From positions 1-27,130 of the IMG/VR virus record IMGVR_UViG_3300009370_000145: a stretch of 27,130 bases of DNA; one strand, given 5' to 3'. Shown here one piece after another: positions 18,283 to 27,130 of the stretch. The position numbers and the translations under genes were made by a program. Position 1 is the stretch's first letter, and each line of letters begins with the position of its first letter. Below the pieces are notes generated by a model. It ran no database searches. It saw only the letters and a program-made list of their open reading frames with translations, and was not told where the DNA came from. This stretch comes from a virus.

Positions 18283-18315
18283 AAGCCCTGCGAGAAATCG
18301 CAGGGCTTTTTTTTT
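18283..18315 (+). terminator. Intrinsic terminator 1
   Basis: AGCCCTGCGA and TCGCAGGGCT with a 4-nt loop form a 10-bp stem followed by nine Ts. It is a textbook rho-independent terminator 15 nt after the stop of the second gene. Confidence 0.95.
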
Positions 18316-18340: not shown

Positions 18341-18377
18341 AGACCGCCACAATTCGCCTGTGACGGTCTTTTTTTTT
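18341..18377 (+). terminator. Intrinsic terminator 2
   Basis: AGACCG and CGGTCT form the outer stem, with CACA/TGTG pairing inside after a C/A mismatch, followed by a run of nine Ts. The tandem terminator indicates that readthrough into the array is strongly limited, so the following genes need their own promoter. Confidence 0.88.
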
Positions 18378-18691
18378 CTATGGGTATGGGATCATGTAAT
18401 TCTTTTGCGTTGCTTGTGGGGGATTGTCGGCAGTCTGAAAGCTATCCCGTAAGCTTGAAGCCTTGCCGCAAGATTGAAAGACGGCCGATTGTCACCAATT
18501 GGGAGAGCCTTCAAGATATTGCCTTCATCCGCACACCCAGGCACACGCGCACGCGCGTGTAATCGACTGCGCGCTTGGTTGGCTGGCAAGATCCCACCGG
18601 CTGAACTCCCCCTTTTCTCTCTCTTCTTTCTGAAGAGAGAAAAGGGGGAGAGAATGGAACAATTTTTCACCGCAACATTGGAGGTTTTCTA
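18378..18691 (+). other. 314-bp gap without a convincing gene
   Basis: Between the terminators and the 123-aa gene. It contains a palindrome ACACGCGC-AC-GCGCGTGT (18543-18560) and the first long cassette hairpin (18606-18650). I expect a promoter for the downstream array here but found no pair close to consensus. The open frames crossing the region lack Shine-Dalgarno sites and begin at weak codons. Confidence 0.55.
18606..18650 (+). repeat. Cassette hairpin 1
   Basis: A 16-bp perfect stem with a pyrimidine-rich 5' arm (CTCCCCCTTTTCTCTC) and a purine-rich 3' arm. It is followed by ACAATTTTTCACC and then TTGGAGG before the 123-aa gene. It is the first of the intergenic hairpins that separate genes of the array. 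Confidence 0.9.
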
Positions 18692-19063
18692 ATGGCGAAT
18701 ATCGAAGATATTATCGGCAGCGGCTTGAACCATAGGTTCGGGATCATCATTCCGTCAACCCAGGGGGTTGCCGGGCAAGATATTGACGGAAAATCCAACA
18801 AATGGACGCGAATTGCTCAAGAGCAATTTTCAAACTGGTTTGGTGGTGCAACTACCAGCCAGGGAGAAGGGGCTTGGATGTCCGAGTCCGAAGGACTCGT
18901 TACCGAGCAGGTTGTGACCGTAAACGGTCACACAAATGCCGATGGAATTAAGGATAGAATCCGCGATGTTGCGGGATTAGCGCAAGAGATTGCCGCAGAC
19001 ATGCAGCAAGAGGCCGTCACAATTATCGTAGATAATTCAATGCACTTTATCGAAGCGGCATAA
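18692..19063 (+). CDS. Hypothetical phage protein of the gene array
   Basis: 123 aa. RFGIIIPSTQGVAGQDIDGK is followed by FGGATTSQGEGAWMSESEGL and a helix ending QQEAVTIIVDNSMHFIEAA. The order (beta-start, FGG-x-T and a G-x-W before an acidic segment) loosely resembles the small secreted-type DUF3574-like proteins, but this is a weak resemblance. The Shine-Dalgarno is TTGGAGG, 7 nt before the ATG. It carries internal perfect hairpins at 18811-18828 and 18913-18932. Confidence 0.75.
   Translation: MANIEDIIGSGLNHRFGIIIPSTQGVAGQDIDGKSNKWTRIAQEQFSNWFGGATTSQGEGAWMSESEGLVTEQVVTVNGHTNADGIKDRIRDVAGLAQEIAADMQQEAVTIIVDNSMHFIEAA
18913..18932 (+). repeat. Perfect intragenic hairpin, 9-bp stem
   Basis: TGTGACCGT-AA-ACGGTCACA inside the 123-aa gene. 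Confidence 0.9.
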
Positions 19064-19108
19064 CCCCTATTCCCTTCACTGAACGTAGTGAAGTGAAGGA
19101 AATAGGGG
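19064..19108 (+). repeat. Cassette hairpin 2
   Basis: The outer stem CCCCTATT/AATAGGGG (8 bp), one mismatch, and the inner stem CCTTCACT/AGTGAAGG (8 bp) close a loop GAACGTAGTGA. An alternative smaller stem CACT/AGTG can form inside. It is followed by ACAATTTTTCACC, as in hairpin 1, and by GGAGG before the next gene. Confidence 0.9.
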
Positions 19109-19144
19109 AGAGTAGGACAATTTTTCACCACAACGGAGGTTTTC

Positions 19145-19489
19145 ATGTCAAGACGTAGCAGATCCGCTCCCACAAGGGCTTTCCGTACCGACACCGGCCA
19201 GGATTGGCTGGACGATAACTCTAAAGAGTTATCGGAAAAACGCACTAATCGGGTAGCGAAGGCCGCGATCCAGGCCGAACGGGAATTTAGGAAATTCCCC
19301 CATAGGTCTGAAGTTGTCGCGGATTCCAACGGAATCCAGATTTATCGTTGGGAACCTTATAAAAGGTTCCGCAAGCTTGGTACTCGATTCTTCGCTGTAG
19401 ATACCCGTAGCACCCTGGCATACGGCGAAATCGTGATCACCGGTCAGTATAAACTGACCAAGTACGGAAGCTGGAAGCAAGTGGCCTAA
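19145..19489 (+). CDS. Basic hypothetical protein, hairpin-dense gene
   Basis: 114 aa, strongly basic (MSRRSRSAPTRAFRTDTGQD), no Cys. It ends with a strand-rich region (GTRFFAVDTRSTLAYGEIVI). No recognised family. The gene carries five perfect short hairpins: 19213-19234 (10 bp), 19281-19299 (8), 19321-19337 (7), 19351-19370 (8) and 19442-19459 (7). That is remarkable in a 345-bp gene. GGAGGTTTTC precedes the ATG. Confidence 0.75.
   Translation: MSRRSRSAPTRAFRTDTGQDWLDDNSKELSEKRTNRVAKAAIQAEREFRKFPHRSEVVADSNGIQIYRWEPYKRFRKLGTRFFAVDTRSTLAYGEIVITGQYKLTKYGSWKQVA
19213..19234 (+). repeat. Perfect intragenic hairpin, 10-bp stem
   Basis: CGATAACTCT-AA-AGAGTTATCG inside the 114-aa gene. Confidence 0.9.
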
Positions 19490-19499
19490 CCGAATATCT

Positions 19500-19544
19500 C
19501 CCCTCTCTCTCTCACTGAACATAGTGAAGTGAGAGAGTGAGGGG
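19500..19544 (+). repeat. Cassette hairpin 3
   Basis: The outer 6-bp stem CCCCTC/GAGGGG, a mismatch, and a 10-bp inner stem ending CACT close the loop GAACATAGTGA. It is followed by AACAACCACAACC and CTGGAGG before the zinc-ribbon gene. Confidence 0.9.
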
Positions 19545-19571
19545 GGAAACAACCACAACCCTGGAGGTAAC

Positions 19572-19751
19572 ATGAAAAACACCGATTGCGTTTGTCCCGT
19601 TTGTTCTGAAGTCTTCGACGGCGAAGAAGGTATGACGGCATACCTTCCGGTCGGTGTGGATCTCCTGGAGCAGGATCTAACCTGGGTATGCAAGTCTTGC
19701 GGCCCGGAAATTGAGGTAGAAAATCGGGAAAATCTGGTTTGGAAATCTTAA
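19572..19751 (+). CDS. Small zinc-ribbon protein
   Basis: 59 aa. The two CxxC knuckles CPVC (8-11) and CKSC (40-43) are about 29 residues apart, which is zinc-ribbon spacing. CTGGAGG lies 6 nt before the ATG. A small regulatory or host-interaction role is common for such phage proteins, but the partner is unknown. A 9-bp perfect hairpin (19626-19647) lies inside. Confidence 0.78.
   Translation: MKNTDCVCPVCSEVFDGEEGMTAYLPVGVDLLEQDLTWVCKSCGPEIEVENRENLVWKS
19626..19647 (+). repeat. Perfect intragenic hairpin, 9-bp stem
   Basis: GAAGGTATG-ACGG-CATACCTTC inside the zinc-ribbon gene. Confidence 0.9.
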
Positions 19752-19754
19752 CCA

Positions 19755-19772
19755 TTAAACCTGGAGGTTTAA
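19755..19772 (+). promoter_or_regulatory. Palindromic Shine-Dalgarno, copy 1
   Basis: TTAAACC-TGGA-GGTTTAA. The GGAGG core is divided between loop and stem, so folding would mask the ribosome site. It lies one base before the ATG of the 55-aa gene. The same element recurs at 21750 and 21996. Confidence 0.85.
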
Positions 19773-19773
19773 C

Positions 19774-19941
19774 ATGGAATGGAAACAGACAAGTTATGAC
19801 GCATGGTATCAGGAAGACGACCTGGAGCCGGAAGGCTGGTTTTACCAGATAACCGGCGATGTCCCTTCGGGACCGTTCAGAACTGAAAAGGCTGCTATGC
19901 AGCATCTCGATGACACTATCGAAGATCGGAGGAAAGCATGA
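19774..19941 (+). CDS. Small acidic protein (55 aa)
   Basis: 55 aa beginning MEWKQTSYDAWYQEDDLEPE, rich in aromatic and acidic residues, then GWFYQITGDVPSGPFRTEKA. The start follows the palindromic Shine-Dalgarno. Its TGA overlaps the next ATG (ATGA), so the two are translated together. Function not recognised. Confidence 0.75.
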   Translation: MEWKQTSYDAWYQEDDLEPEGWFYQITGDVPSGPFRTEKAAMQHLDDTIEDRRKA

Positions 19942-20237
19942 AAGTTTTTGCACTATGGCACGGCGGCTCCAGCTATTCTCAAGGTTCCCTGGAGAAGTAC
20001 CTGGAAACCTTCGATAGCCTGAAGGCTGTGAAAGAAGAACTGCGCGACAGGTATGATGGCAAGGCATATCAGACCTGGGCAAGCGGCCAAACTCCGAACT
20101 GGTGTTATACACCTACGGTGTCCGACAATTCGAGTTTCTGGGTCTGGATCGAAGATCCCCGCGACATGGATGATCCGTATCCAGATCGGATCGTGTCCTT
20201 CGGTCCCAAAATGGGAGTGCGGATCGAACGAGCTTAA
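19938..20237 (+). CDS. Conserved-type small phage protein
   Basis: 99 aa: MKVFALWHGGSSYSQGSLEK, then YLETFDSLKAVKEELRDRYD, then TPNWCYTPTVSDNSSFWVWI. The layout (ALWHGGSSY near the start, a segment with F-x-S and an AVxEEL helix, and a later TP-x-V) is like small proteins seen in other phages; the function of the family is unknown. CGGAGG is in the preceding codons. Several short perfect hairpins (arms of 5 bp) occur within. Confidence 0.78.
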   Translation: MKVFALWHGGSSYSQGSLEKYLETFDSLKAVKEELRDRYDGKAYQTWASGQTPNWCYTPTVSDNSSFWVWIEDPRDMDDPYPDRIVSFGPKMGVRIERA

Positions 20238-20239
20238 CT

Positions 20240-20280
20240 CCCTTCTTCTCTCTCGCTTTCTGCGAGAGAGAGAAGAAGGG
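20240..20280 (+). repeat. Cassette hairpin 4
   Basis: The CCCTTCTTCTCTCTCGC 5' arm pairs with a 19-nt GA-rich 3' arm that has a 2-nt bulge. The loop is TTTCT. It is followed by ACAACGGCAACCACAACC and AGGAGG before the 121-aa gene. Confidence 0.9.
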
Positions 20281-20314
20281 AAACAACGGCAACCACAACC
20301 ACAGGAGGTTCAAC

Positions 20315-20680
20315 ATGAACCAATATCGTGACAGGATTTTGCCCGATACACTGGTCGGAATGGGCGAACACCAGCAGGAACAGTACCGGCAGGGCCAGGC
20401 GGCAGCCAGGGCGCTGGTCGATGGGGTAAATGCAATGTGCAACGACACCTTCAACCAGGGCTTCCTTGCAGAGCTTGACGATTCTCACCGTACTCTTCAG
20501 CAGAAGAGTACAGAACTGCTGGCTCAATGGCTGCAAGTATTGAAGCAGAAGCGCACCGGAGAGTACGATGGGCGTAACGAATTTTCCGTAAAATTCGCTC
20601 AAGATGTCTGGAGGATGCTGGAAGAGAACGACTCGTACTATGTACGAGATGACCAGGCTATCGGATTCCCGTATATCTGA
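20315..20680 (+). CDS. Helical hypothetical protein
   Basis: 121 aa, predominantly helical and Gln/Glu/Leu-rich (HQQEQYRQGQAAARALVDGV and RTLQQKSTELLAQWLQVLKQ). No recognised family. AGGAGG lies upstream with ordinary spacing. It carries perfect hairpins at 20490-20511 (9 bp), 20578-20597 (8 bp) and 20632-20648 (7 bp). Confidence 0.75.
   Translation: MNQYRDRILPDTLVGMGEHQQEQYRQGQAAARALVDGVNAMCNDTFNQGFLAELDDSHRTLQQKSTELLAQWLQVLKQKRTGEYDGRNEFSVKFAQDVWRMLEENDSYYVRDDQAIGFPYI
20490..20511 (+). repeat. Perfect intragenic hairpin, 9-bp stem
   Basis: GTACTCTTC-AGCA-GAAGAGTAC inside the 121-aa gene. Confidence 0.9.
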
Positions 20681-20689
20681 AACACTACT

Positions 20690-20734
20690 CCCCTCTCACC
20701 CTCACTGAACATAGTGAAGTGAGGGCGAGAGGGG
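20690..20734 (+). repeat. Cassette hairpin 5
   Basis: The outer stem CCCCTCTC/GAGAGGGG (8 bp), a mismatch, and an inner 8-bp stem ending CACT close the loop GAACATAGTGA, the same loop as hairpin 3. It is followed by CTAACCACAACC and CTGGAGG before the next gene. Confidence 0.9.
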
Positions 20735-20763
20735 GAACTAACCACAACCCTGGAGGTACTGAC

Positions 20764-20925
20764 ATGGCTGAATGGGAAATATCTATCTGGCATGGAGAAA
20801 GCGGCACCATCTGGTATGTGGTGCATGAGGACCACGACACGATGGAAAATAGCTGCTCTACTTTCAACGGCGAAACCATCGAAGATGCCCGGAAATTGCG
20901 GAACCTATTGAATGGAGGCGAATGA
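20764..20925 (+). CDS. Small protein (53 aa) of the array
   Basis: 53 aa starting MAEWEISIWHGESGTIWYVV. CTGGAGG is 7 nt before the ATG. The first 20 residues are beta-like, the last 15 helical. It overlaps the next gene's start by 4 bases. Function unknown. Confidence 0.72.
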   Translation: MAEWEISIWHGESGTIWYVVHEDHDTMENSCSTFNGETIEDARKLRNLLNGGE

Positions 20926-21746
20926 TGACCGATATTTTTGCTGAAATGCTGACGGAAAACACGGGAAAGCACTTTCTCGATTCCGGCGGCTCTACTGGTA
21001 GAGCCTGGCAGAAGAACAAGGAGCGCGACTTCTTGCAGGAGCCGGAGGCTTGGCTCAACTTCTCGAAACACGGCGAACACAATTATCTGGAGTACACCAA
21101 GAATATCTACTGGTTCCTTCGGAACCGGCTGGAGCTAAACGAAGATTGGGACCGTGAGTTTCATGCCTTCGTGGATTCCCTGGACGAAGACAAGGCGTGG
21201 AATGGCTACCTGTCTGCCGCTAATGACTGGCTTGAACTGCTCTCTGAGCAGGGAGCAATCGACGGTCATGGCCCCTATGGGGAAAGCGATGAACCCTGCT
21301 GTGTCAACACCTACAACGGAGAGGATCTACTGTCACAAGTGATCCTTTATCACTTGTTTGAGCGAGAAGGATGCGAAGCGTACATACTGCAAGTGCATGG
21401 TGGGGCTGACGTTAGGGGAGGATACACAAAGCCGCGAGTCTTTGAAGCGAACGGCAATTATGAATTGGCCCTGCTCGATAATGCCAGGGGAACAATCGCC
21501 TGTCCGAAGTGTAACGCCAACTGGTACACCGATGACGGCTACCATTGGTATTTTGACGGTGGAGGCAGCAACGATCTCCCTGAAAGGGAGTGGATCACTA
21601 CACCGGAATCTTGGAAGCCCAACGATGCCGTAGGAATGGGGAACCTTTGGGTTCCCGAAGTGTCTGACGACAAGCTGTGGATCACTGAAGAGGGCGCGGC
21701 CTGGTGTCCCTGCTGCGCTAAAGCGAAGCTGGAAGCATACGACTAA
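20922..21746 (+). CDS. Conserved phage protein with zinc-binding knuckles
   Basis: 274 aa (272-274 depending on start; ATG codons at 20922 and 20925, the latter at better spacing from GGAGG). LDSGGSTGRAWQKNKERDFL near residue 19 and HGGADVRGGYTKPRVFEANG around residue 158 are typical of a phage family of unknown function with an S-G-G-x-x-G-R-x-W/Y core. Two CxxC-type knuckles, CPKC near residue 193 and CPCC near 263, suggest a zinc site. It is the largest gene of the right-hand array. Perfect hairpins occur at 20988-21005 (8 bp), 21335-21357 (9 bp) and 21639-21656 (7 bp). Confidence 0.85.
   Translation: MMTDIFAEMLTENTGKHFLDSGGSTGRAWQKNKERDFLQEPEAWLNFSKHGEHNYLEYTKNIYWFLRNRLELNEDWDREFHAFVDSLDEDKAWNGYLSAANDWLELLSEQGAIDGHGPYGESDEPCCVNTYNGEDLLSQVILYHLFEREGCEAYILQVHGGADVRGGYTKPRVFEANGNYELALLDNARGTIACPKCNANWYTDDGYHWYFDGGGSNDLPEREWITTPESWKPNDAVGMGNLWVPEVSDDKLWITEEGAAWCPCCAKAKLEAYD
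21335..21357 (+). repeat. Perfect intragenic hairpin, 9-bp stem
   Basis: ACAAGTGAT-CCTTT-ATCACTTGT inside the 274-aa gene. Confidence 0.85.
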
Positions 21747-21770
21747 CCATTAAACCGGAGGTTTAACATG
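21729..21770 (+). repeat. Direct repeat A, copy 1
   Basis: A 42-nt unit covering the last codons of the 274-aa gene (LEAYD and stop), the palindromic Shine-Dalgarno and the next ATG. It recurs at 21975-22017 with one extra base (a T between CC and GGAG). Confidence 0.9.
21750..21766 (+). promoter_or_regulatory. Palindromic Shine-Dalgarno, copy 2
   Basis: TTAAACC-GGA-GGTTTAA, one base before the ATG of the 74-aa gene. Confidence 0.85.
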
Positions 21771-21992
21771 CGAACGCCGAAGGAAGTCATTAAGAGTCTT
21801 AACCCCGAGCAGCAATCGAGAATAAAACGCCTGATGATGGGCGACAAGATAGCCCGTCTGGAGGCAAGGCGGGCCGATCTGCGAAGGGCTGTGAAAGAGG
21901 CAGAGAAATTATTGGAAGATAAAAGCTCCCAATTGTCAAAAACAGACGAGCGGATTAGCAAGCTAATGGCAGAACTGGAAGCATACGACTAA
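21768..21992 (+). CDS. Coiled-coil protein bounded by direct repeats
   Basis: 74 aa, Lys/Glu/Arg/Leu-rich coiled coil (DKIARLEARRADLRRAVKEA), ending in LEAYD exactly as the preceding gene does. The matching ends are part of a 42-43 nt direct repeat at 21729-21770 and 21975-22017. Recombination between copies would delete the gene cleanly. Function unknown. Confidence 0.78.
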   Translation: MRTPKEVIKSLNPEQQSRIKRLMMGDKIARLEARRADLRRAVKEAEKLLEDKSSQLSKTDERISKLMAELEAYD

Positions 21993-22017
21993 CCATTAAA
22001 CCTGGAGGTTTAACATG
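21975..22017 (+). repeat. Direct repeat A, copy 2
   Basis: A 43-nt second copy of the repeat at 21729. It spans the last codons of the 74-aa gene, its stop and the next start. Confidence 0.9.
21996..22013 (+). promoter_or_regulatory. Palindromic Shine-Dalgarno, copy 3
   Basis: TTAAACC-TGGA-GGTTTAA, one base before the ATG of the 127-aa gene. It is identical to the copy at 19755. Confidence 0.85.
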
Positions 22018-22398
22018 TCAAAAGTATACCACGTAAAATCTGAGAAGTTCGGGGGCAGGGTAAACACACCGGCATACCCCGAGTACACGCTTAATTTTCC
22101 CGATGACTATGACCTGGTTGCCCACGTTCACAGCCACGAACTGCGTCAAGTGTACGAGTACACCAACAGCATTGACAAAAGCTGGACGGAGAATCGCGGC
22201 AAGTTGCTACCACTTGGGTCCACTTCTCACAGATCCACCTCCGTAGGAGATGTGATTGTCACCAGGGAGGGAGTCTTTGAGGTCGCCCCGGTGGGGTTCA
22301 GGAACCTTCACGGTGAAGGCCAGCCTTTTGAAGCGCCGCCAGTGCCCGGAGAGGTTGTACGATATATAAACGACCGGCTTTTTGAGGAGATCGGCTAA
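22015..22398 (+). CDS. Conserved small phage/plasmid-type protein
   Basis: 127 aa. The segment VYEYTNSIDKSWTENRGKLL followed by HRSTSVGDVIVTREGVFEVA is a recognisable conserved core (TNSID-x-SW then RSTSVGDV) of small proteins found on phages and plasmids; no function is established for it. The palindromic Shine-Dalgarno precedes the ATG. A 7-bp hairpin (22305-22319) lies within. Confidence 0.78.
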   Translation: MSKVYHVKSEKFGGRVNTPAYPEYTLNFPDDYDLVAHVHSHELRQVYEYTNSIDKSWTENRGKLLPLGSTSHRSTSVGDVIVTREGVFEVAPVGFRNLHGEGQPFEAPPVPGEVVRYINDRLFEEIG

Positions 22399-22404
22399 CC
22401 GACA

Positions 22405-22455
22405 GTTCTCTCCCTCACTCTCTGAACATAGTGAAGAGAGTGAGGGAGAGAGAAC
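22405..22455 (+). repeat. Cassette hairpin 6
   Basis: The GTTCTCTCCCTCACTCTCT 5' arm pairs with a purine 3' arm with a 2-nt AG bulge; the loop begins GAACATA. It is followed by AACAACCACAACC. Confidence 0.9.
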
Positions 22456-22465
22456 AACCACAACC
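22438..22465 (+). repeat. Direct repeat B, copy 1
   Basis: 28 nt: the end of the purine arm of hairpin 6 plus the CAACCACAACC leader. It is identical to 22711-22738. Confidence 0.9.
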
Positions 22466-22485
22466 TTAAACCTGGAGAACGAAAC

Positions 22486-22510
22486 GTGGATCGCCACACT
22501 CTCACACTGA
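22486..22510 (+). repeat. Direct repeat C, copy 1
   Basis: 25 nt encoding VDRHTLTL, starting exactly at the GTG start. It is identical to 23082-23106 inside the 63-aa gene. Confidence 0.9.
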
Positions 22511-22716
22511 ACAAAAAAGAGGCTCTTGATCTTCTCGCTACCTTGCGGGACTGGAGAACAAGCCTTCTTGACCCCAACAACCCCAATGATACGACGAAAG
22601 GATTTCTCGTGGACCCGGACGACAAGAAAGACGGCCTCACAGTAGAGCGATTCAACGCTATTGCTCAAAGGCTGGAGCAGTTCACGGCGAAGCCCCTTCC
22701 CCGCTTCACGGAGTGA
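22486..22716 (+). CDS. Small protein with GTG start, flanked by direct repeats
   Basis: 76 aa starting with GTG: VDRHTLTLNKKEALDLLATL, then a variable middle with several Asp/Pro, ending PLPRFTE. The Shine-Dalgarno is CTGGAGAACG. Its stop TGA sits inside the second copy of the 28-nt repeat (22711-22738). The gene thus ends within a copy of the preceding hairpin's 3' arm. Its first 25 bases are repeated inside the gene at 22977. Function unknown. Confidence 0.72.
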   Translation: MDRHTLTLNKKEALDLLATLRDWRTSLLDPNNPNDTTKGFLVDPDDKKDGLTVERFNAIAQRLEQFTAKPLPRFTE

Positions 22717-22738
22717 GGGAGAGAGAACAACCACAACC
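22711..22738 (+). repeat. Direct repeat B, copy 2
   Basis: 28 nt identical to 22438-22465, here without the matching 5' arm, so only half of the hairpin remains. It contains the stop of the 76-aa gene. Confidence 0.9.
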
Positions 22739-22752
22739 ACAGGAGGCACGAC

Positions 22753-22980
22753 ATGACGAAAGACCTGGCGAAGCGGATCAAGGAAGCGGAAGCAGCCTTC
22801 AAGAAGGCTGATGGAGAGTGGGGCATCCTGCACATGACCGTCGATCACTCGACAGCAAGCGGGAAGGCTGCAATCGGAGCGGCACTAGCCAAGTATGAGC
22901 AGGCAGAAGCGGATCTCGATGCAGCGTATGACGAAGCCGGACTCGATATCACAGCCGGAGAACAGGAGGATGACGAATGA
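22753..22980 (+). CDS. Small helical protein
   Basis: 75 aa, Ala/Glu/Lys/Asp-rich (MTKDLAKRIKEAEAAFKKAD), acidic at the C-terminus (GEQEDDE). AGGAGGCACGAC precedes the ATG. It overlaps the next gene by 4 bases. An 8-bp perfect hairpin (22793-22810) lies within. Function unknown. Confidence 0.78.
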   Translation: MTKDLAKRIKEAEAAFKKADGEWGILHMTVDHSTASGKAAIGAALAKYEQAEADLDAAYDEAGLDITAGEQEDDE

Positions 22981-23168
22981 CATGGCAGGAATATCAGACG
23001 GGAATGTGGGAGTCAGGCGATGAGCGTTGGCGCATTGTGCAGACTCGCTTCTGCTTTCCCGCTTTCGATGTACATGAGAAGGTGGATCGCCACACTCTCA
23101 CACTGAGGCAGAAGAACCTGGCATCTTTAGATGCCGCAATCGAATGGATAGGAGGCAAGGATGACTAA
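22977..23168 (+). CDS. Small protein sharing VDRHTLTL with gene 22486
   Basis: 63 aa: MTWQEYQTGMWESGDERWRI, then FDVHEKVDRHTLTLRQKNLA and a short helical end. The peptide VDRHTLTL matches the start of the protein at 22486 and is encoded by an identical 25-nt sequence. The start overlaps the upstream stop (ATGA). Function unknown. Confidence 0.72.
   Translation: MTWQEYQTGMWESGDERWRIVQTRFCFPAFDVHEKVDRHTLTLRQKNLASLDAAIEWIGGKDD
23082..23106 (+). repeat. Direct repeat C, copy 2
   Basis: 25 nt identical to 22486-22510, internal to the 63-aa gene. Confidence 0.9.
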
Positions 23169-23418
23169 GCGTACTGACGACCTTTTGCAGACGGGTATGA
23201 ATTTTCTCAAGGGTGCGATGTGGTACGAGTTCAACACACCACACCAGGAGATCGTGGAGGTGATCTTCGGAGAAGGACACCATGACAACTACTACGAGGA
23301 GAAGCTGGAGAAGATCCACAAGCGAGGTCTCCTCTTCCTTTACGGAGAGGTCGACGGGGCTGGCCGCAAGCGGCTGGTGGAAGCGATCTTCGACAGGTAC
23401 GGCAAGGACTTCGACTGA
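23161..23418 (+). CDS. Small hypothetical protein of the array
   Basis: 85 aa, MTKRTDDLLQTGMNFLKGAM then FGEGHHDNYYEEKLEKIHKR, ending acidic. It starts 8 bp before the end of the previous gene; GGAGGCAAGG precedes the ATG. No recognised family; helical overall with a His/Asp-rich middle. Confidence 0.75.
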   Translation: MTKRTDDLLQTGMNFLKGAMWYEFNTPHQEIVEVIFGEGHHDNYYEEKLEKIHKRGLLFLYGEVDGAGRKRLVEAIFDRYGKDFD

Positions 23419-23423
23419 TTACT

Positions 23424-23466
23424 ATATCTCTCTCCTCCCCCTTTAGGGTGAGGAGAAGAGAGATAT
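23424..23466 (+). repeat. Cassette hairpin 7
   Basis: The arms ATATCTCTC and GAGAGATAT (9 bp), with a CCTC/GAGG inner stem separated by an internal loop. It is followed by ACACCACAACCC and ATGGAGG before the next gene. Confidence 0.82.
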
Positions 23467-23493
23467 AACACCACAACCCAATGGAGGTACGGC

Positions 23494-23694
23494 ATGACCA
23501 CATACTACATAGTGCGGAGTTATTTCGAGGACGGAGTGCGGAACAAGCGGATCAAGGAGGGCCTGACGCGAGAAGAAGCGCAGGAACACTGTAGCGATCC
23601 CGAAACAAGCTCAAGCACCTGCACTGAGGACGCAGGCATTGAGCATACGGAGAAATATGGACCCTGGTTTGATGGATTTGAAAGCGAGGAATAA
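23494..23694 (+). CDS. Small conserved-type phage protein
   Basis: 66 aa: MTTYYIVRSYFEDGVRNKRI, then LTREEAQEHCSDPETSSSTC and a PWFDGFESEE end. The EEAQEHCSDPETSS segment followed by GPWFDG is typical of a small family common in actinobacteriophages and other phages, of unknown role. TGGAGG is upstream. Two nucleotides separate it from the start of the next gene's ATG. Confidence 0.8.
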   Translation: MTTYYIVRSYFEDGVRNKRIKEGLTREEAQEHCSDPETSSSTCTEDAGIEHTEKYGPWFDGFESEE

Positions 23695-23695
23695 C

Positions 23696-24013
23696 ATGAC
23701 TGACGACAAGAAAGTACCCGAATGGGTTGGAACAGTAAGCCATGCGACTATGAGGTGGGAGGATCTGATCCCTGCGTTCACGGATTTCCTGCGGGAAATC
23801 GGGCAGGGAAATGTGTTCAGCAAGGAGGAATGTCCGAACCACCAGCAGGCAGAGCGCAGCGTGGGGACTGTCTATGCGGATCTCGATGAGATCCTGAACG
23901 ACCTGTTCGATGCGATTGACGACTATGTACCCGAAGGCTATTACTTCGGCGCTCACCCTGGCGATGGATCTGACTACGGCATCTGGCCTGTAGAGGAGGA
24001 GGAGGACGAATGA
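23696..24013 (+). CDS. Acidic conserved-type protein
   Basis: 105 aa, MTDDKKVPEWVGTVSHATMR to YVPEGYYFGAHPGDGSDYGI and WPVEEEEDE. The FGAHPGDGSDYGxW segment near the acidic C-terminus recalls other phage and prophage proteins of unknown function. GAGGA precedes the ATG. Its stop overlaps the next ATG (ATGA), coupling it to the lysozyme gene. A 7-bp hairpin (23783-23800) lies inside. Confidence 0.77.
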   Translation: MTDDKKVPEWVGTVSHATMRWEDLIPAFTDFLREIGQGNVFSKEECPNHQQAERSVGTVYADLDEILNDLFDAIDDYVPEGYYFGAHPGDGSDYGIWPVEEEEDE

Positions 24014-24477
24014 AAATTATAGTAACGATCTGGTGGATTCTATTCTTTATCCTGATCCTTGGCCCCTTTGCGTATCACCTGTTCGGTGCGCCACCGGCTT
24101 ACACCTGGCGGCAGACGCTCGACGCGATCCGGCAGGTAGAGACCGGCGGCTGCGAGAACGAGGGACGAGGTGCGAAGGGCGACAAGGGCAAAGCCCTTGG
24201 TCCCTACCAGATATGGAATATCTACTGGCAGGATGCGGCAGTTCCCGGCAGGGAATACCGTGAGGTGCTGCACGATAAGAAGCTCTCTGAGCTTGTTGTC
24301 GAGAGATACATGCAAAGGTATGCAAGGGAGTCCTTGCGGCGCTTACAGCGTGGCACAGGGACTCTGAAGGACGTTGAGGTGGTAGCCAGGATACATAATG
24401 GTGGCCCGAAGGGAAACCAGCGTAAATCTACGCTTGGCTACTGGAACAAGGTACGGAAGGAGGTACGGAATGACTGA
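24010..24477 (+). CDS. Membrane-anchored i-type (destabilase-like) lysozyme
   Basis: 155 aa. Residues 3-24 (IIVTIWWILFFILILGPFAY) form an N-terminal signal or anchor helix. The mature part matches the invertebrate-type lysozyme/destabilase family: a catalytic-type Glu44 in VETGG, D58 in KGDKG, GPYQI at 64-68, ARIHNGGPKG at 126-135 and YWNKV at 144-148. In i-type lysozymes the Glu and a following Asp are the catalytic pair, so cleavage of peptidoglycan glycan chains is likely; the anchor fits a SAR-type or inner-membrane endolysin. The pattern of paired Cys seen in animal i-lysozymes is absent. It is coupled to the upstream gene by ATGA and overlaps the next gene by 8 bp. Confidence 0.8.
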   Translation: MKIIVTIWWILFFILILGPFAYHLFGAPPAYTWRQTLDAIRQVETGGCENEGRGAKGDKGKALGPYQIWNIYWQDAAVPGREYREVLHDKKLSELVVERYMQRYARESLRRLQRGTGTLKDVEVVARIHNGGPKGNQRKSTLGYWNKVRKEVRND

Positions 24478-24682
24478 CGATTATAGCCCGTTCGAGAACT
24501 GGACACCTGAAAAGGGGGATCAAATCATGGCTCTTGTCGAGAGCATTTGCGAGGACGAGGTGGATGCAGCCGCCCACCTGGCCTCCTGCCTGTTGGCGCT
24601 GATCCCTGATGGGGATAGTGCAATCAGCTTAGTCCGGTATCTCTACACCCAATTCGCCCTCTACGAGGCGGAGAGCAACTAA
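24470..24682 (+). CDS. Small protein downstream of the lysozyme
   Basis: 70 aa: MTDDYSPFENWTPEKGDQIM, then LVESICEDEVDAAAHLASCL, helical. The ATG at 24470 follows AAGGAGGTACGG, which is encoded by the last codons of the lysozyme gene, so the two are coupled. A longer frame upstream overlaps the lysozyme and lacks a Shine-Dalgarno. It could be a lysis partner, but it has no transmembrane helix. Confidence 0.72.
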   Translation: MTDDYSPFENWTPEKGDQIMALVESICEDEVDAAAHLASCLLALIPDGDSAISLVRYLYTQFALYEAESN

Positions 24683-24684
24683 CA

Positions 24685-24735
24685 GTTCTCTCCCTTTCTT
24701 CCGTAACAAAGTGAAGGAAGAAAGGGAGAGAGAAC
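24685..24735 (+). repeat. Cassette hairpin 8
   Basis: The GTTCTCTCCCTTTCTTCC 5' arm pairs with a purine 3' arm with the same 2-nt AG bulge as hairpin 6. It is followed by AACAACCACAACC and AAGGAGG. Confidence 0.9.
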
Positions 24736-24758
24736 AACCACAACCAAGGAGGTACGAC

Positions 24759-25010
24759 ATGACTGATACGGAACTGCGCGAGGCACTTGTTGATCTCGCA
24801 GCGTTTATTCTCTACGCCCTGGAGAACGGAAAGAACGACAACTTCAGGGTGTCTATGGACGAGCGAGACATATTCGCCACGGTGGGGCATGACGTAAACG
24901 GCCTGATCCGCAGGCTGCAACCAGTGAACCCTGACGAGTTCTTCGTACCCCGCAGCGCGGGGTACGGTAAGGAATTTAAACCTGGGGCTAAGGAAGCTCC
25001 ACCATTTTAA
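24759..25010 (+). CDS. Small hypothetical protein
   Basis: 83 aa: MTDTELREALVDLAAFILYA, a hydrophobic helix, then MDERDIFATVGHDVNGLIRR. AAGGAGGTACGAC precedes the ATG. It contains a perfect 10-bp hairpin (24944-24966) near its 3' end. Family not recognised. Confidence 0.75.
   Translation: MTDTELREALVDLAAFILYALENGKNDNFRVSMDERDIFATVGHDVNGLIRRLQPVNPDEFFVPRSAGYGKEFKPGAKEAPPF
24944..24966 (+). repeat. Perfect intragenic hairpin, 10-bp stem
   Basis: CGTACCCCGC-AGC-GCGGGGTACG near the 3' end of the 83-aa gene. Confidence 0.9.
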
Positions 25011-26300: not shown

Positions 26301-26331
26301 TACTGGCCCCATCCTACGGGTGGGGCCAGTA
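26301..26331 (+). repeat. Strong hairpin before the tandem genes
   Basis: TACTGGCCCCA and TGGGGCCAGTA form a perfect 11-bp stem with a 9-nt loop. There is no U-tract. It sits between the stop of the 86-aa gene and the GGAGG of the next gene. Confidence 0.88.
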
Positions 26332-26346
26332 TCTATTGGAGGTTAC

Positions 26347-26371
26347 ATGGAAATCATTATCTACACAGACA
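26347..26371 (+). repeat. Direct repeat D, copy 1
   Basis: 25 nt at the start of the first tandem paralog, identical to 26736-26760 at the start of the second, encoding MEIIIYTD. Confidence 0.9.
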
Positions 26372-26736
26372 GCCTACAGGCTTGCCTGTATGTCCAGGTG
26401 TTTATGCGTTACCCCGAAGGGGTAACGGCTCCAGGGGCGTGGTCGCGGGAGCAGTTAGAAGAGAAGTATCCGGCGGTGCTGCTTGCCAGCGGGGGGCAGC
26501 ATCTATTCGACAGCGAGATGCTTGTTCGTGAGGTGAAGCATCACGACCCATTGGGGTTCAGGGATGAGTTGCTTGCGAGGGACCCTCGCCCAAGAAATCT
26601 AAAGGTTGCTATCGGCCTTAGTCGATATGACCTAGACTTCCTTCTGTATAGATATTTAGCAGGTGGGGCGGCTTCGGTAATGGGAAAAGACGTTCCCGGC
26701 AAAACGTGGGAAAAGAATCAGGGCGAGGACGCGTAA
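26347..26736 (+). CDS. Tandem paralog, copy 1
   Basis: 129 aa: MEIIIYTDSLQACLYVQVFM, then PEGVTAPGAWSREQLEEKYP, then VAIGLSRYDLDFLLYRYLAG. It is paralogous to the following gene: shared PEGVT, GAW, LLAS and the L-S-R-x-D/H-x-x-x-L-L-Y pattern. TTGGAGG is 5 nt before the ATG. Its TAA shares a base with the next ATG (TAATG). No known function. A 9-bp hairpin (26407-26427) lies inside. Confidence 0.82.
   Translation: MEIIIYTDSLQACLYVQVFMRYPEGVTAPGAWSREQLEEKYPAVLLASGGQHLFDSEMLVREVKHHDPLGFRDELLARDPRPRNLKVAIGLSRYDLDFLLYRYLAGGAASVMGKDVPGKTWEKNQGEDA
26407..26427 (+). repeat. Perfect intragenic hairpin, 9-bp stem
   Basis: CGTTACCCC-GAA-GGGGTAACG inside tandem paralog 1. Confidence 0.9.
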
Positions 26737-26760
26737 TGGAAATCATTATCTACACAGACA
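26736..26760 (+). repeat. Direct repeat D, copy 2
   Basis: Start of the second tandem paralog; identical to 26347-26371. Confidence 0.9.
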
Positions 26761-27130
26761 ATATGCAGGTCAGCTTTGTAGCCAGCCTGTTTGATCGTAT
26801 GCCCGAGGGGGTAACTTGTCGCGGGGCGTGGACCCACGAACAAATGAAGGACAGGTTCCCAGGAGCCTTGCTTGCCTCGCGGGGGCAGGACATGTATGAA
26901 AGCAAAATGCTTTCAAGGAATATACAGGTCTTCAATCCGATTAAATTCAAGGAGGAGGTGGAGGCGGCTCGTTCCCACCCTAACGGCATACAGGTACACT
27001 TCGGACTCTCTCGACATGATTACGAGTACCTGCTCTACTACTTCGGCGGTTATGGCCGCCGATCCTACAACCTGAAAGGCAAGGGAATGAAGGTTGCGGG
27101 CCGGTTCTGGGGGTTCTGGAAGGACGTGGG
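26736..27130 (+). CDS. Tandem paralog, copy 2 (runs off the right edge)
   Basis: At least 131 codons, beginning MEIIIYTDNMQVSFVASLFD and reaching NLKGKGMKVAGRFWGFWKDV. The first 25 bases are identical to those of the upstream paralog. No stop appears before the right edge, so it is partial. The pair most likely arose by duplication followed by divergence. An 8-bp hairpin (26897-26915) lies inside. Confidence 0.82.
   Translation, partial: MEIIIYTDNMQVSFVASLFDRMPEGVTCRGAWTHEQMKDRFPGALLASRGQDMYESKMLSRNIQVFNPIKFKEEVEAARSHPNGIQVHFGLSRHDYEYLLYYFGGYGRRSYNLKGKGMKVAGRFWGFWKDV

What the first reader, a model, noticed from the sequence alone, without database searches (positions are those of the whole stretch)
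18606..24735. Repeated intergenic module: Py/Pu hairpin, unstructured ACAACCACAACC leader, then GGAGGT and start
At least eight junctions of the right-hand gene array (18606, 19064, 19500, 20240, 20690, 22405, 23424 and 24685) share one layout after the stop codon. First comes a long stem-loop whose 5' arm is pyrimidine-rich and 3' arm purine-rich. Then comes a 10-15 nt leader rich in A and C (ACAACCACAACC and variants), then GGAGG and ATG or GTG. Arm sequences differ between copies while pairing is kept: at 20240, 22405 and 24685 with the same 2-nt AG bulge, at 19064, 19500 and 20690 with one central mismatch and a conserved loop GAACATAGTGA (GAACGTAGTGA at 19064). None of the hairpins is immediately followed by a U-tract, so they are not standard terminators. 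Covariation with a conserved shape suggests a functional RNA element: RNase III or RNase E processing, transcript stabilisation, or insulation of each ribosome site from the upstream gene. It could be a previously undescribed intercistronic RNA family.
Basis: partly seen in the sequence, partly recalled or inferred. Interest (0 to 1): 0.9.

Follow-up and report, generated by a model that had tools for sequence, protein, structure and literature searches.

The report
Capped hairpins between phage genes
Between the small genes of this uncultured phage sits a repeated RNA-type hairpin followed by an unstructured ribosome landing strip, and the same capped hairpin recurs in the same position in about a dozen otherwise unrelated phage groups, so it looks like an undescribed boundary element of phage messenger RNAs whose exact job still has to be tested.

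Summary
Seven junctions and one leader in the right-hand array carry a 16-21 bp hairpin, an A/C-rich G-poor leader, a Shine-Dalgarno and a start codon. Four hairpins share the apical sequence CUGAAC[A/G]UAGUGAAG: tandem G·A pairs, two base pairs and a triloop. That cap recurs in 117 stretches of IMG/VR; a control with the G·A steps inverted finds none, and only 15 occur in 257 Gb of bacterial genomes. Of 71 distinct hits, 70 have all four flanking positions Watson-Crick paired, although pairing was not required. A covariance model built without the window finds the four window copies at E 1e-11 to 3e-9. Copies occur in about 13 protein-unrelated phage groups with the same layout, all on one strand within each genome. 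They are not terminators, not a known Rfam family and not general N4-type promoters. Best explanation: an RNA-level boundary (insulation, protection or processing) between translation units. The mechanism is inferred. Nearly pure Watson-Crick arms leave a DNA-level role or template-switch correction open.

The parts
18606..18650 (+). Hairpin 1 (UUUCU loop, CU bulge in 5' arm) in the leader of gene 18692-19063; leader and GGAGG follow to 18691
   Evidence: (z -3.9)
19064..19108 (+). Hairpin 2, cap CUGAACGUAGUGAAG, one C·A mismatch, directly after stop codon 19061-19063
   Evidence: E 8e-10 with a model that excludes the window
19109..19144 (+). Leader with GGAGG and ATG at 19145
19497..19547 (+). 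Hairpin 3, cap CUGAACAUAGUGAAG, one U·U mismatch
   Evidence: z -5.9; E 6e-10
19548..19571 (+). A/C leader AACAACCACAACCCTGGAGGTAAC before ATG 19572
20239..20281 (+). Hairpin 4 (UUUCU loop, AG bulge in 3' arm)
   Evidence: z -6.2
20282..20314 (+). A/C leader with AGGAGG before ATG 20315
20689..20735 (+). Hairpin 5, cap CUGAACAUAGUGAAG, one A·C mismatch
   Evidence: z -5.2; E 3e-9
20736..20763 (+). A/C leader with GGAGG before ATG 20764
22406..22452 (+). Hairpin 6, cap CUGAACAUAGUGAAG, AG bulge in 3' arm
   Evidence: z -6.2; E 1.5e-11
22453..22485 (+). A/C leader with GGAG before GTG 22486
22705..22752 (+). Truncated module: 3'-arm-like GAGTGAGGGAGAGAGAAC plus ACAACCACAACC leader and AGGAGG, without a 5' arm; does not fold
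   Evidence: (z -0.4)
23423..23467 (+). Hairpin 7 (different cap, 3-nt bulge in 3' arm)
   Evidence: z -2.8
23468..23493 (+). A/C leader with GGAGG before ATG 23494
24686..24732 (+). Hairpin 8, variant cap GUAACAAAGUGA, AG bulge in 3' arm
   Evidence: z -5.1; E 0.002
24733..24759 (+). A/C leader with AAGGAGG before ATG 24760
26301..26331 (+). Ninth junction hairpin (TACTGGCCCCA...TGGGGCCAGTA) after stop 26295, followed by GGAGG and ATG 26347; no conserved cap
   Evidence: (weak, E 0.45)

Best explanation
The module is a transcript-level boundary between translation units of phage operons. Right after the stop codon the RNA folds into a 16-27 bp hairpin. In many copies a compact cap closes it: C-G and U-A closing pairs, tandem G·A/A·G, A-U and C-G pairs and a triloop (RUA, GAA, AAA). 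A 17-41 nt G-poor, mostly A/C leader follows, so the next Shine-Dalgarno and start codon stay unpaired just outside the hairpin. Proposed action: the hairpin stops upstream RNA from pairing with the next ribosome site and stops 3'-5' exonucleases from running from one unit into the next; in hosts with a suitable RNase III it may be cut there. Shown: structure, layout, sense-strand placement, recurrence in unrelated phages, absence of a U-tract. Inferred: that the transcript is the acting molecule, insulation, protection and processing.
For: Layout in 61 hairpins: 60 with a start downstream, 42 with both an upstream stop and a start; most stops 0-12 nt before the hairpin; leader G 9% against 25% background. 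Predicted folds leave leader and SD largely open. Orientation: a full sense layout in 17 hits against 1 antisense, and the same strand for all copies in each of 13 multi-copy contigs. Cap needed in the GA form: 117 hits against 0 for the swapped control. Triloop and closing-pair variants keep GA..GA in most cases in copies not selected for it. In the window, hairpins start units whose inner genes are joined by short overlaps or short gaps. Not terminator-like, while a real terminator with a T8 run sits at 18283-18308.
Against: Arms are almost free of G·U (6 of about 1250) and G·U does not clearly exceed A·C, which is unlike helices kept only by RNA selection. The same cap, as its reverse complement, lies inside phage replication genes, where the sense RNA does not have the G·A form. 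No transcript data exist. L004 shares genes but has no modules. Four of eight window hairpins lack the exact cap.
Confidence: 0.55

Rival explanations
1. RNase III processing sites of the phage T7 kind: the hairpins are cut to give separate, stable mRNAs (a specific form of the best explanation).
For: Helix length of 16-27 bp with small bulges suits RNase III; position between genes matches. One carrier contig (G012, locus L265) encodes a T7-type RNA polymerase and has its three hairpins upstream of that gene on the same strand.
Against: Host unknown; no cleavage data; no conserved internal loop at a fixed place; a conserved apical cap is not a known RNase III determinant (own knowledge).
Confidence: 0.3
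2. DNA-level element: a ssDNA or cruciform hairpin with a very stable GA/GNA-like tip, used as a promoter (as in N4 early promoters), a primosome site or an origin.
For: Nearly perfect Watson-Crick arms without wobble excess. The same tip, inverted, in the linker of phage replication initiator genes. N4 vRNAP promoters use a hairpin whose 3-base loop forms a sheared G:A pair (PMC4496689).
Against: No T7/N4-type RNA polymerase in 19 of 20 carrier contigs, though several are fragments. Always sense and tied to stop-leader-SD-start layout. N4 stems are short; these are 16-27 bp.
Confidence: 0.2
3. Mutational by-product: palindromes kept perfect by template switching during replication and spread between junctions by recombination, with little function.
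For: Arms change wholesale but stay perfect. 22405 and 24685 share outer arms, and 22705 is a 3'-arm-plus-leader copy, so recombination has moved pieces.
Against: Does not explain an uncorrected GA·GA cap shared by unrelated phages, a G-poor leader, constant sense orientation, or the absence of the GA-swapped control.
Confidence: 0.12
4. Binding site for a phage or host RNA-binding protein that recognises the cap.
For: A specific apical sequence is enriched with variable stems.
Against: About 13 groups without shared close protein relatives carry it, so a common phage protein is unlikely; a stable cap explains it as well.
Confidence: 0.12

Closest known systems
Phage T4 intercistronic CUUCGG hairpins (Tuerk et al. 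1988; own knowledge, paper not held)
   Same: Stable hairpins with a special cap placed between phage genes, several copies per genome
   Different: Cap is GA/AG plus triloop, not C(UUCG)G; followed by an A/C leader; found across many unrelated uncultured phages
Phage T7 RNase III sites (own knowledge)
   Same: Intercistronic hairpins of similar length in the early and middle region
   Different: T7 sites carry an internal loop that directs cleavage; these carry a conserved apical cap and nearly perfect arms; cleavage untested
SAS/ESAS repeats of cluster K mycobacteriophages (PMC3203893)
   Same: Inverted repeats just upstream of ribosome sites of small non-structural genes in the right half of the genome
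   Different: ESAS arms have a conserved sequence per subcluster and the authors found little support for mRNA hairpins; the SAS 13-mer is absent here
N4 virion RNA polymerase promoter hairpins (PMC4496689)
   Same: Hairpin tip with a sheared G:A pair, upstream of genes
   Different: Short stem, fixed sequence, DNA-level, needs vRNAP; no such polymerase in 19 of 20 carriers
Intrinsic terminators
   Same: Stem-loop after a stop codon
   Different: No U-tract; followed directly by the next ribosome site

Membership tests
Intrinsic terminator | U-tract within a few bases of the stem | tested here: not met
   None of the junction hairpins is listed as terminator-like on the + strand with its full stem; 18283-18308 is; leaders are A/C-rich
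Any Rfam 15 family | Covariance model score at or above gathering | tested here: not met
   Window region: only sub-threshold matches, nearly all miRNA precursor models; five carrier loci: no match at a module
T4-type CUUCGG hairpin | C(UUCG)G loop on the hairpin | tested here: not met
   CTTCGG occurs in the window but not at any of the junction hairpins
Cluster K SAS/ESAS | GGGATAGGAGCCC next to start codons | tested here: not met
   Best matches have 3 mismatches, at chance level and not at the junctions
N4-type hairpin promoter | Single-subunit T7/N4-type RNA polymerase in the phage | tested here: inconclusive
   1 of 20 carrier contigs has PF00940, but several contigs are fragments; the window record itself is only 27 kb and was not shown complete
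T7-type RNase III site | Cleavage by RNase III in the hairpin | not testable with these tools
   Needs biochemistry or RNA-seq
Capped-hairpin set defined here (models R1/R2) | Cap CUGAAC[R]UAGUGAAG with complementary variable arms, sense strand | tested here: met
   R2, built without window copies, finds 19069, 19505, 20695 and 22412 at E 1.5e-11 to 2.8e-9; the four other window hairpins only weakly

The most novel reading that the evidence does not exclude
A phage-specific RNA boundary element, found by convergence or exchange in at least a dozen unrelated phage groups, that cuts polycistronic phage mRNA into independent translation units with one standard capped hairpin plus landing-strip leader; the same tip is used at DNA level inside phage replication initiator genes.
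Probability: 0.3. Interest if true: 0.8.

Novelty: new variant of a known kind. Interest (0 to 1): 0.6.

Why it matters
Phage operons with dozens of small genes must give each gene its own ribosome access and mRNA stability. A recurrent, model-searchable module that seems to mark such boundaries in unrelated uncultured phages would give a handle on operon layout in viral dark matter, and a ready-made insulator part to test in reporters. The strong bias to viruses (117 stretches in IMG/VR against 15 in 257 Gb of bacterial and archaeal genomes) makes it a viral signature.

Tried and rejected
Rfam scan of the region: only sub-threshold matches, nearly all to miRNA precursor models. Leader motif alone: 61 loci, none with the hairpin, so the leader by itself is not diagnostic. 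Relatives through the major head protein: none. Named phages: no nucleotide relative of the window array beyond an 85-base match, and none for three carrier loci; a probe set of capped hairpins gave one weak hit (Acetobacter phage phiAX1). Orthologous junctions in L004: no module. Pyrimidine/purine arm polarity: not general; carriers such as L202, L230, L234 and L265 have mixed arms, so it is a habit of this lineage. G·U against A·C wobble test for RNA or DNA: inconclusive, 6 against 4. T7-type polymerase as a common partner: 1 of 20. Literature search for the exact sequences: none in the library.
Full report
What is in the window. The window is a 27,130-base IMG/VR virus record. The left half is a minus-strand structural cluster (terminase, portal, major head protein). 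From about 18.7 kb a plus-strand array of small, mostly unknown genes follows. The nearest portal relatives in named phages are Arthrobacter phages at about 25% identity; no near relative was found.

The observation. All eight hairpins are present, with 16-21 pairs each in the single-strand fold and shuffling z-scores from -2.8 to -6.2. Seven follow a stop codon by 0-8 nt; the one at 18606 is the leader hairpin of the first gene of the array, downstream of a true terminator with a T8 run at 18283-18308. The A/C leader motif is far above chance (10 against 1.45). Every gap longer than 70 nt between 18.7 and 24.8 kb has the module, and the remaining junctions are overlaps or gaps of 2-36 nt. A ninth hairpin lies at 26301-26331, and at 22705-22752 a 3' arm plus leader stands without its 5' arm.

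The cap. Four hairpins (19064, 19500, 20690, 22405) share CUGAAC[A/G]UAGUGAAG at the tip; 24685 has a variant. Drawn out it is C-G, U-A, tandem G·A and A·G, A-U, C-G and a triloop. ViennaRNA gives the same paired positions; the sheared geometry is inferred from established knowledge of tandem GA.

Recurrence. The pattern YYYYCTGAACRTAGTGAAGRRRR finds 117 stretches in viral contigs, 15 in 257 Gb of bacterial and archaeal genomes, and the same pattern with GA turned to AG finds none in viral contigs. The pattern demands pyrimidine opposite purine but not complementarity, so each flank pairs by chance about half the time; 70 of 71 distinct hits pair at all four positions, where about 4 would be expected. 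A GAA triloop version finds 55 stretches.

Two settings. The hits fall into two groups. Group A is intercistronic: stop, hairpin, leader, often a Shine-Dalgarno, start. Group B lies inside 160-390 aa reading frames on the opposite strand and encodes [S/P/T]SLRS followed by E, G, V, D or A in one constant frame, 51 of 51; four tested proteins match phage replication initiation or helicase loader families.

Group A statistics. 34 distinct copies aligned on the cap: all ten flanking pairs show changes on both sides, covariation score 0.557 against 0.161 in shuffles and at most 0.207 in slid versions. The four innermost pairs were selected for pairing when the set was made, so the weight rests on the outer pairs and on the 70 of 71 count. 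A model without window copies (R2) finds the four window copies at E 1.5e-11 to 2.8e-9 and 24692 at 0.002. Carriers form 13 groups that share no protein at 40% identity or more, the window being one; two of them (L220, L257) lack the layout and were left out of the layout count. At a looser cut-off (E below 1e-8) some groups join, the window among them. Relaxed copies found by the model keep GA..GA and AC..GU in most cases with triloops RUA, AAA and GAA or two- and four-base loops.

Layout. Over 61 hairpins, 43 have an upstream stop in range, mostly 0-12 nt away, and 60 a start, mostly 17-41 nt after the hairpin; leader minus SD zone is A 0.42, C 0.28, G 0.09, T 0.21 against an even background. 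Group A was chosen partly by context, so the unselected orientation test matters: full layout is on the cap's strand in 17 cases and on the opposite strand in 1. In 13 contigs with several copies all copies lie on one strand. Genes after the module are mostly of unknown function.

Mechanism. A hairpin that starts at the stop codon, ends just outside the footprint of the next initiating ribosome (footprint size is established knowledge) and is followed by G-poor RNA is best read as a boundary that keeps the next ribosome site open and separates RNA segments. Whether it is cut by RNase III, blocks exonucleases, or only insulates cannot be told from sequence. One carrier (G012) has a T7-type polymerase, and T7 is the known case of RNase III cutting between genes (own knowledge).

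Caveats. Arms are almost purely Watson-Crick: 1242 pairs, 6 G·U, 4 A·C. Helices kept by RNA selection usually carry more G·U (own knowledge), so DNA-level function or correction of palindromes by template switching remains possible; but such correction would also tend to remove the G·A steps of the cap, and they persist. The module goes with genomes, not with genes: L004 shares two genes and has none. No isolate-level or transcript evidence was available; the literature library holds none of the exact sequences.

Known relatives. T4 CUUCGG hairpins and T7 RNase III sites are the nearest in working; SAS/ESAS of cluster K mycobacteriophages the nearest in layout, but their authors found little support for mRNA hairpins (PMC3203893) and the SAS is absent here.

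Noticed in passing
L006, L010, L023, L042, L045 and about 46 further loci (group B): The same 15-mer, reverse-complemented, with complementary flanks lies inside phage replication initiator / helicase-loader genes, always in one frame, encoding PSLRSG, SSLRSE or TSLRSV in the linker; the residue pairs P-G, S-E, T-V follow DNA complementarity, which suggests a nucleic-acid hairpin (perhaps an in-gene origin, as in lambda gene O).
   Followed up: partly
window 19752-19773, 21747-21767, 21993-22014: A second junction type: CCATTAAACC(T)GGAGGTTTAACATG, the Shine-Dalgarno sits inside a 7-bp palindrome (TTAAACC/GGTTTAA), three copies.
   Followed up: partly
window 18283-18308 and about 18342-18379: Two tandem terminator-like hairpins with long T runs close the gene upstream of the array (the second seen by eye only).
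   Followed up: partly
window 24010-24477: Protein matches Pfam Destabilase (lysozyme-like) at E 8e-10 after an apparent N-terminal hydrophobic segment; a likely lysis gene within the array.
   Followed up: no
window 26347-27130: Two neighbouring genes start with the same peptide (MEIIIYTD), an apparent tandem duplication.
   Followed up: no
L323 8520-8596: Type II hammerhead ribozyme (Rfam RF02276, above gathering) about 280 nt upstream of a capped hairpin module in this viral contig.
   Followed up: no
L063 1380-1461 (-): Short stretch scoring above gathering for tmRNA although only 82 nt long; may be a tRNA-like remnant or a phage tRNA-like element.
   Followed up: no
L186 (Verrucomicrobiia MAG) and L188 (SAR116): Two of the 15 cellular-genome hits have long stems (21 and 15 bp); may be prophage or host use of the element.
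   Followed up: no
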